A stretch of 64,000 bases of DNA. It comes from Carettochelys insculpta (taxonomy: Eukaryota > Chordata > Testudines > Carettochelyidae). This document shows, piece after piece, positions 41,144-42,355 of this stretch. The stretch's first letter is position 1. Each line of letters begins with the position of its first letter. Position numbers and translations under genes: made by a program. The DNA lies in assembly GCF_033958435.1 (NCBI RefSeq), contig NC_134160.1, positions 13,069,001 to 13,133,000 on the forward strand, in the 5' to 3' direction. The notes beneath the pieces were generated by a model. The model did no database searches, had not been told where the DNA came from, and saw nothing but the letters and a program-made list of their open reading frames with translations.

Positions 41144-41331
41144 CCTTATAATAATAAACTCAAGCCACCCAATCTATTTAGCTTAACAAAGGGGAAAGTT
41201 AAAGGGTGATTTGGTCATATTTATAAGTACAGTCATACCCCGAGATACACCCATTTGAGTTACGAGTATTCGACTTTACGAGGAGTTTCATTTAATACCC
41301 CTACTTCAGCTTACGAGGCATTTCTTTGCAT

Positions 41332-41541
41332 TTACGAGGACCGATTTGGAGGCTGGCGGCTCTGGTAGGCAGGCACTGAGGGGATGGAGTCGGCTGTGTT
41401 GGTCTTGAGGCAGAGGCCGTGCAGGGGGGCGGCGGTGCCCTCCGAGAGGGCAGCAGTCTGGTGCAGGGAGGTAGACTTGTCCGAGTCCCGGCAGTAGATG
41501 ACGCCGCTCTGCAAGATGTGGATGCTGGGTGCGCAGCCCAT
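41332..41541 (-). pseudogene. PDE8B: PDE8B first-exon fragment captured in a transposon
   Basis: Reading minus from the ATG at 41541-41539 gives 69 codons. The first 60 or so align without gaps to the N-terminus of phosphodiesterase 8B as I recall it: MGCAPSIH, then QSGVIYCRDSD, then AAPL, then GL, then ADSIP. PDE8 enzymes are high-affinity cAMP phosphodiesterases; this end precedes the REC and PAS domains and carries Gly2/Cys3, expected lipidation sites. Near residue 65 (41347) similarity ends and transposon arm sequence (NRSS, stop) begins, so REC, PAS and catalytic domains are absent. The copied frame has no stop or frameshift. An in-frame ATG 31 codons upstream (41634) lies in likely former 5' UTR. 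PDE8A shares only the first residues, so PDE8B is preferred. It runs antisense to PTPRU. Confidence 0.85.
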
Positions 41542-41875
41542 CCAAGCCCCGCTGCTGCTGCTCACCCGCTGGGCGCCTAGGGGGCCGCCGCCGCCCACCC
41601 TGCGCAGCTTGCTGTCTGTGGTGCTCCCTCCCATTTAGCGCCTGGCTCACCTGCCGCCACCGCCTCGGCTGCCGCTGGCGGGACCTCTCCGCCATGCAGC
41701 CCCGCACAAGAAAGGCATTGCCCCTCGCCAGCTGGGAGCCCCCTGTGCCTGCCTAGCTCCCCACGTGGCCAGCCCCTGGCAGCGCCCCCTCCCCGCTTAA
41801 CCTAAGCTGCACTCAGGCCGGGCTGCCTCCCTGTGCCCTGTTCTGCCCTGCCCGCCCCCTTGCACCGGATTTAAT
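41542..41875 (-). promoter_or_regulatory. CpG-rich leader of the captured PDE8B segment
   Basis: Upstream (minus strand) of the captured ATG is a CpG-rich stretch with GGCGCC, CCGCCGCC and GCGGCAGCC words, continuing to about 41875 where AT-rich transposon arm resumes. Its position suggests it is PDE8B 5' UTR, possibly with proximal promoter, copied together with the exon. Whether any promoter activity was or is carried is inference. Confidence 0.45.
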
Positions 41876-42355
41876 GGGATTTGGTGTTGTCTTAGCATAA
41901 ATAGGTGTACATTTTGGGGCTCAGGAACACATACAATTTTTTCCCATTGAAATTAATGGTAATTACATTTTTGATTTACGAGAATTTGCCCTAAGAGGGG
42001 CTTTTCAGGAACGAATAACCCTCGTAAGGAGGGGGGAAGACTGTACCTACATTGTGGGGAACAATATTGGATAATCAGCACTCCAGTTTAGTAGACAAAA
42101 GTCTCTCCCAATCCAATGGCTGGAGGTAGAAGCTAGACAAATTCAAATGGGAAATAAGATAAAAGCTTTTAGCAATCAAGATAATTAACCATTGGAACAA
42201 CTTACCAAAGGTCATGGTGGATTCTCTGTCACTGGCAATATTTTAAAACAAAGATGGAAAGTTTCTCTAAGGAGTTTGCTCTAGGAATGATTCTGGGGAA
42301 GTTCCACAGCAGGTCAGACTAGATGAACCCAATGGCCCCCCCTGGCCCCAGGAGT

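What the first reader, a model, noticed from the sequence alone, without database searches (positions are those of the whole stretch)
41230..42043. A pogo-like transposon has captured the first exon of PDE8B
Seen: an 814-bp element with CAGTC termini and TA on both sides contains, between AT-rich arms, a CpG-rich block whose minus strand encodes MGCAPSIH, SGVIYCRDSD and further residues in PDE8B order for about 62 codons without a stop. Known: MGCAPSIH...SGVIYCRDSD is the start of PDE8B as I recall it. Inference: host gene DNA was picked up by a non-autonomous Tc1/mariner-type element (a Pack-TIR-like event) and reinserted into a PTPRU intron. Gene capture by pogo-type MITEs is little described in vertebrates, and other copies would spread PDE8B sequence through the genome.
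Basis: partly seen in the sequence, partly recalled or inferred. Interest (0 to 1): 0.93.

Follow-up and report, generated by a model that had tools for sequence, protein, structure and literature searches.

The report
Tigger transposon carrying PDE8B's start
In what is likely the pig-nosed turtle genome, a cut-and-paste transposon carries a copy of the front end of the gene PDE8B (upstream DNA plus first exon) and is present in hundreds of places; it likely grabbed the piece once and then would have scattered a host promoter and first exon around the genome.

Summary
Window 41230-42043 is one copy of a Tigger-type (pogo) family whose interior is host genomic DNA from the 5' end of PDE8B (consensus 90% identical to native over 530 bp). 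A genome-wide scan finds 345 matches to the arm/PDE8B junction of this copy's size class; its control finds 0. Longer copies (about 1.40 kb) hold about 0.95 kb of contiguous native DNA: upstream sequence, first exon, splice donor, start of intron 1. Retroposition is therefore excluded. Of four transposase-encoding relatives read with both arms, three carry the PDE8B piece between their 5' arm and the transposase, antisense to it; one lacks it. A 2-bp microhomology and a shared ~20-bp filler point to one capture; short, long and mini classes look like deletion derivatives. Copies fit neutral decay, their CpG content has roughly halved, and no chimeric protein was found. Animal Pack-TIR elements are known, but a survey of 100 genomes found only four multicopy cases. 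Hundreds of copies plus transposase-bearing carriers make this a striking new variant. The PTPRU intron was not confirmed.

The parts
41228..41229 (.). TA target-site duplication, left
   Evidence: sequence; TA at both ends in 31 of 40 short copies and 11 of 19 long copies
41230..41350 (-). L arm (5' end of the Tigger element), CAGTC terminus
   Evidence: 92.6% to the 121-nt arm of the long-class consensus; the same arm (87.8% over 115 nt) is at the 5' end of transposase-bearing L117
41348..41868 (-). Captured PDE8B genomic DNA (upstream flank plus first 65 codons); short-class deletion form
   Evidence: 85.9% to the long-class capture; short consensus 90% to native L053:4513-5035
41335..41541 (-). 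Open frame: 65 PDE8B-like codons plus 4 arm codons (NRSS); stop at 41332-41334
41542..41868 (-). Upstream (promoter-side, CpG-rich) PDE8B DNA
   Evidence: alignment to native L053:4513-4838
41870..42043 (-). R arm (3' end of the Tigger element, past the transposase gene in autonomous relatives)
   Evidence: 91.4% to R arm 1-173; whole or nearly whole R arm at 5 of 20 sampled transposase loci
42044..42045 (.). TA target-site duplication, right
   Evidence: sequence

Best explanation
The window holds one copy of a Tigger-type (pogo) transposon family, present in hundreds of places in this genome, whose interior is host DNA from the 5' end of PDE8B and which likely arose when a transposase-encoding element captured that DNA once and then spread, mostly as shorter deletion derivatives. 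Shown: the arms, the TA duplications, the PDE8B block with upstream DNA, exon 1 and (in long copies) splice donor and start of intron 1, the copy counts, transposase-bearing relatives with and without the PDE8B block, and the junctions they share. Inferred: capture by template switching during repair or replication, because the insert replaces about 45 bp of the element's 5' untranslated region with a 2-bp AG microhomology at one end and about 20 bp of filler at the other. Inferred: the transposase moved all classes in trans, since termini and TA target are shared. Inferred: long copies would act as mobile promoter plus first exon plus splice donor, reading out through the L arm into neighbouring DNA. 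The short class (the window copy) lacks the donor and would at most act as a promoter or CpG-rich block. In transposase-bearing carriers the captured DNA lies back-to-back with the transposase gene, so it would be in a position to promote it. After insertion the copies fit decay without selection on the frame.
For:: 205 distinct places with family sequence on 25 contigs, 183 of them from the two PDE8B-bearing searches; 345 junction matches (173+172), control 0; unrelated flanks, TA both sides in 31/40 short and 11/19 long copies; 18-copy long consensus, 876/975 columns identical to native, including intron 1; open frame of 104 codons running up to the GT donor; no arms within the 9.9 kb read at the native locus; in a tree rooted on native the 39 short copies nest within the 18 long ones (with one outgroup the tree does not itself test single capture); 5 of 20 chosen DDE_1 loci carry the R arm; of 4 read with both arms, 3 carry PDE8B and 1 (L117) does not; insertion point, microhomology and filler shared by L115/L116/L118 and the long consensus (junctions read by eye). 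CENP-B_N, HTH_Tnp_Tc5 and DDE_1 in L117 and L118; omega 0.98 in short copies; in the captured block CpG sites 27% (short) and 32% (long) changed, other sites 4.3% and 6.4%.
Against: No transposase-bearing copy with an uninterrupted full-length capture was seen: the three carriers have a shortened, partly duplicated PDE8B block, so the order of events is inferred. A fifth transposase copy (L094) shows the R arm but neither L arm nor PDE8B; its 5' end is missing or interrupted. L117's left terminus is degenerate (no CAGTC). The terminal inverted repeats are short and imperfect. CpG loss suggests that copies are mostly methylated, so promoter activity is untested. The 20 transposase loci were chosen by hit length and score, not at random. 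The 40 short copies were the best matches to the window copy and the 19 long ones are 19 of the first 20 matches to a protein, so divergences and the long-class omega (0.87) are biased low.
Confidence: 0.9

Rival explanations
1. The PDE8B block was captured first by a non-autonomous element (MITE), and later recombined into transposase-bearing copies.
For: The long class has the most complete capture and an L arm that looks closer to capture-free L117 than those of the carriers.
Against: The carriers hold about 50 bp more native upstream sequence (alignments from native 4348/4352) than the long class (from 4404) and join it directly to transposon 5'UTR sequence, which a MITE-first history does not give simply.
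Confidence: 0.1
2. A segmental duplication of PDE8B exon 1, with coincidental transposon-like ends.
For: The inverted repeats are weak.
Against: 205 dispersed places; shared ends, unrelated flanks and TA duplications in the copies read; no arms in the 9.9 kb read at the native locus; a transposase gene between the same arms.
Confidence: 0.01
3. A processed retrocopy of PDE8B mRNA inserted in a MITE.
For: Contains coding sequence and the start codon.
Against: The long consensus contains about 430 bp upstream of the ATG and about 200 bp of intron 1 with the splice donor, contiguous with native DNA.
Confidence: 0.01
4. The captured exon is maintained as a functional protein or peptide gene in the copies.
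For: Both consensus sequences have an open frame, and 18 of 39 short and 11 of 18 long copies still do.
Against: Substitutions fit neutral expectation (omega 0.98 short; 0.87 long in a sample picked by protein similarity; 0.85 and 0.72 when CpG sites are left out); 14 of 39 short and 2 of 18 long copies have a frame-breaking length change; CpG o/e is 0.80 in native and 0.31-0.54 in 18 long copies.
Confidence: 0.04

Closest known systems
Pack-TIR elements of animals (Tan et al. 2021, PMC8277862; outline with abstract, search-term passages and sections 7 and 9 read)
   Same: TIR transposon with captured host gene DNA; Tc/mariner elements are among the carriers there (115 of 370); their Ssk-FB4 also has a 2-bp microhomology at one breakpoint and an insertion (45 bp) at the other, and includes upstream DNA.
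   Different: [quoted passage not shown] the examples in the sections read have three or four copies. Here hundreds of copies in three deletion classes, plus carriers with a transposase gene.
HelibatN3 of vesper bats (NUBPL capture; PMC4778049, passages read)
   Same: Captured promoter, start of coding sequence and splice donor, amplified; shown there to act as an exon trap.
   Different: Helitron (rolling circle) with six NUBPL codons. Here a cut-and-paste pogo element with the first exon; no expression test.
Tigger / pogo family transposons (features partly recalled)
   Same: CENP-B_N, HTH_Tnp_Tc5 and DDE_1 transposase, TA target, CAGTC ends.
   Different: Host-gene cargo in the 5' untranslated region of transposase-bearing copies.
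Pack-MULEs of plants (named in PMC8277862; otherwise recalled)
   Same: Gene-fragment capture followed by amplification.
   Different: Different transposase superfamily and target-site duplication; plants.

Membership tests
Pack-TIR (gene-capturing TIR transposon) | Host-gene DNA between the ends of one TIR element | tested here: met
Pack-TIR (gene-capturing TIR transposon) | A native parental copy of the gene elsewhere in the genome without TE ends | tested here: met
   L053; further PDE8 exon 59 kb downstream; no arms in 9.9 kb
Pack-TIR (gene-capturing TIR transposon) | Target-site duplication around the composite element | tested here: met
   TA both sides in 31/40 short and 11/19 long copies
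Tigger / pogo | Related element encodes a DDE_1 transposase with CENP-B/Tc5-type HTH | tested here: met
   L117 and L118 (all three domains), L115 (DDE_1 and HTH_Tnp_Tc5)
Tigger / pogo | Clear terminal inverted repeats | tested here: inconclusive
   CAGTC at both ends, otherwise only a short gapped patch matches between the ends of the long consensus
Tigger / pogo | Demonstrated mobilisation by that transposase | not testable with these tools
   needs a cell assay
MITE | Short, non-coding for transposase, high copy number | tested here: met
   short 818 bp class counted; mini 598 bp class seen in 7 fetched copies, not counted
Mobile promoter/exon trap (HelibatN3-like) | Captured promoter-side DNA, start codon and splice donor in one element | tested here: met
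   long consensus keeps about 430 bp of upstream DNA, the ATG and a GT donor; promoter activity itself not tested; the window's short class lacks the donor
Mobile promoter/exon trap (HelibatN3-like) | Chimeric transcripts or proteins | tested here: inconclusive
   21 protein hits, none above 75% identity, 9 named (none a turtle), 12 unnamed; no RNA data available

The most novel reading that the evidence does not exclude
A cut-and-paste vertebrate transposon captured a host CpG-rich promoter in the one place where it serves the element itself: back-to-back with the transposase gene. The captured PDE8B promoter, working in both directions, drove transposase one way and a mobile first exon (PDE8B N terminus plus splice donor) outward into new loci the other way, which powered the spread of the family and seeded chimeric first exons through the turtle genome.
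Probability: 0.25. Interest if true: 0.95.

Novelty: new variant of a known kind. Interest (0 to 1): 0.85.

Why it matters
In the published survey read here, gene capture by cut-and-paste transposons in animals is mostly single-copy. This family gives the native donor, a capture-free transposase element, transposase-bearing carriers and three derivative classes in one genome, so the steps from capture to mass spread can be read from sequence. It also makes a direct test possible: whether a captured host promoter boosted a transposon's own transposase, and whether hundreds of mobile promoter and first-exon pieces changed host transcripts.

Tried and rejected
Retroposition was rejected (intron and upstream DNA in long copies). 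Segmental duplication was rejected. An arms-only search meant to find an empty MITE found instead a third PDE8B-carrying class. A crude dN/dS with fixed transition weight gave 0.59-0.71; it was replaced by a test using the copies' own substitution spectrum. Chimeric proteins: 21 hits, none above 75% identity, 12 unnamed. PTPRU: regex for PTP, MAM, FN3 and Ig motifs gave eight loose hits, none convincing, and Pfam on ten long ORFs no PTPRU-type domain. A solved-structure search with the captured ORF and with a transposase piece gave no match. Whole-genome counts of the long and mini classes did not complete, nor was a transposase protein search of the genome. The tree was rooted on the only native sequence, so it cannot test whether there was one capture; that rests on the shared junctions.

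Papers: 'PDE8B'+'transposon'+'turtle' gave 0 papers in the held library. Searches gave listings; only PMC8277862, PMC4778049 and PMC10960847 were opened, in part.

Full report
What is there. Window 41230-42043 has CAGTC/GACTG ends and flanking TA, AT-rich arms and a GC-rich middle. Its minus strand encodes 65 PDE8B-like residues from 41541, four residues from the arm, then a stop. Pfam names the N-terminal PDE8 domain (PF08629, E=5.7e-19); a flatback turtle exon-1 protein is 80% identical.

Host. The genome held for the window is 2.18 Gb in 134 contigs. Contig C6 is 127,301,102 bases long, exactly the contig length listed for a Carettochelys insculpta protein (P0058). The published assembly of that species is also 2.18 Gb, with 14.23% DNA elements (PMC10960847, passages read). 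I infer the pig-nosed turtle (Trionychia).

Copies. One search scored 40 of 1114 candidates: the window copy itself and 39 others at 83-87%; 38 of the 40 run essentially end to end. A protein search with turtle exon 1 scored 150 of 1192 candidates: the native gene plus 149 other places, which I sorted by query range into 69 long, 78 short and 2 intermediate. With the arms-only search (40 of 1493 candidates scored) the union is 205 distinct places on 25 contigs, 183 of them; the 22 found by arms alone include mini copies and the transposase locus L094. Of 14 hits fetched from the last part of the list, 14 have at least one arm and 12 have both. A junction pattern specific to the window's size class matches 345 times with up to two mismatches; the reversed control matches 0 times. 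A Lincoln-Petersen estimate from the overlap (40, 78, shared 6) is about 520 short copies; the samples are not random, so this is rough. Flanks are unrelated (agreement 0.32-0.44 against 0.80-0.98 inside). TA is on both sides in 31 of 40 short and 11 of 19 long copies, and in 5 of 7 mini copies as read from the printed ends.

The donor. PDE8B exon 1 lies at G000:C5:86524338-86524652 with an open frame; a match to mouse PDE8B residues 132-204 lies 59 kb downstream on the same strand. No transposon arm lies within the 9.9 kb read around exon 1. The short consensus (39 copies) is 90% identical to native over 530 bp. The long consensus (18 copies, 1402 bp) matches native from L053:4404 to 5356: about 430 bp upstream of the ATG, exon 1, the GT donor and about 200 bp of intron 1. 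The capture was therefore of DNA, not of RNA.

Classes. Short (818 bp) and mini (598 bp, 7 fetched) correspond to internal deletions of the long form; in the short copies the breakpoints agree within a few bases, apart from two copies cut short on one side. In a tree rooted on native the short copies nest among the long ones; with a single outgroup the tree cannot test whether there was one capture.

The engine. A DDE_1 search scored 150 of 1031 candidates. One lay beside an R-arm hit and proved to be a transposase locus with that arm (L094); its other end and any PDE8B block were not found in the 4.1 kb read. Of 20 further DDE_1 loci that I chose by length and score, 5 carry the R arm (positions 1 to 275-278) and one a piece. 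Four were read with both arms. L117 (about 2.7 kb, left terminus degenerate) has a transposase frame with CENP-B_N, HTH_Tnp_Tc5 and DDE_1, and no PDE8B. L115, L116 and L118 (3349-3394 bp, TA-flanked) have the same layout plus PDE8B DNA between the 5' arm and the transposase, antisense to it; their PDE8B block is shortened and partly duplicated. Their reading frames are interrupted as printed, so these copies are probably dead.

The capture. Against L117, the insert replaces about 45 bp of 5' untranslated sequence. One junction has 2 bp (AG) in common between element and donor; the other has about 20 bp of filler of unknown origin, shared by the three carriers and the long consensus (read by eye). 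The carriers hold about 50 bp more upstream donor DNA than the long class. The simplest history is one capture by a transposase-encoding element, then loss of the transposase (long), then further deletions (short, mini). This order is inferred. The junctions resemble those of Ssk-FB4 in flies, explained there by template switching (PMC8277862, section 9).

Afterwards. Outside CpG the copies differ from consensus by 4.1% (short) and 3.8-7.3% by segment (long); at CpG sites by 23-35% by segment, 87-96% of these changes being C-to-T or G-to-A. CpG observed/expected is 0.80 in native, 0.31-0.54 in the 18 long copies and 0.52 in the window copy. This fits methylation, inferred. Using the copies' own substitution spectrum, omega is 0.98 for short copies and 0.87 for long ones, which were picked by protein similarity; leaving out CpG sites it is 0.85 and 0.72. 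I read this as no clear sign of selection on the exon. A search for longer proteins with this N terminus gave 21 hits, none above 75% identity; 9 have names, none of a turtle, and 12 have none. RNA data are not available here, so expression is open. Two residues (GAAA(A)P against GTAAT) are shared by the consensus copies and native but not by the flatback turtle. That suggests capture after the split from sea turtles; the evidence is thin, and no other turtle genome was searched.

What it works like. The long class has the parts of the bat HelibatN3 exon trap (promoter-side DNA, start codon, splice donor; PMC4778049, passages read). In the carriers the donor DNA lies back-to-back with the transposase gene and could promote it. 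Neither activity was tested.

Novelty. Pack-TIRs are known in animals. Tan et al. found 370 in 100 genomes and four multicopy ones (sections 7 and 9 read). No paper of the held library has PDE8B, transposon and turtle together. Hundreds of copies and transposase-bearing carriers of host cargo make this a new variant.

Noticed in passing
window 3730-4674 (+): Open frame with a reverse transcriptase domain (PF00078, E=1e-27), probably a LINE fragment.
   Followed up: no
window 44977-45678 (-) and 46869-47483 (+): Two oppositely oriented frames with weak GIY-YIG matches just below Pfam's cut-off; possibly Penelope-like retroelements (recalled, untested).
   Followed up: no
L019 and L026 (G000:C23:5164069 + and 5157444 -): Two short copies about 6.6 kb apart in opposite orientation pair closely in the tree: a local hop or an inverted duplication.
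   Followed up: no
L058, L063, L065, L071, L072: Long copies sharing a 21-bp (in-frame) shorter exon, possibly an amplified sub-lineage.
   Followed up: partly
L042: A short copy with about 230 bp inserted in its L arm.
   Followed up: no
L115, L116, L118: The PDE8B block in transposase-bearing carriers contains a repeated unit made of PDE8B pieces with deletions.
   Followed up: partly
long-class consensus, about positions 1250-1270: About 20 bp of filler at the capture junction has no evident match in native PDE8B or L117 by eye; origin unknown.
   Followed up: partly
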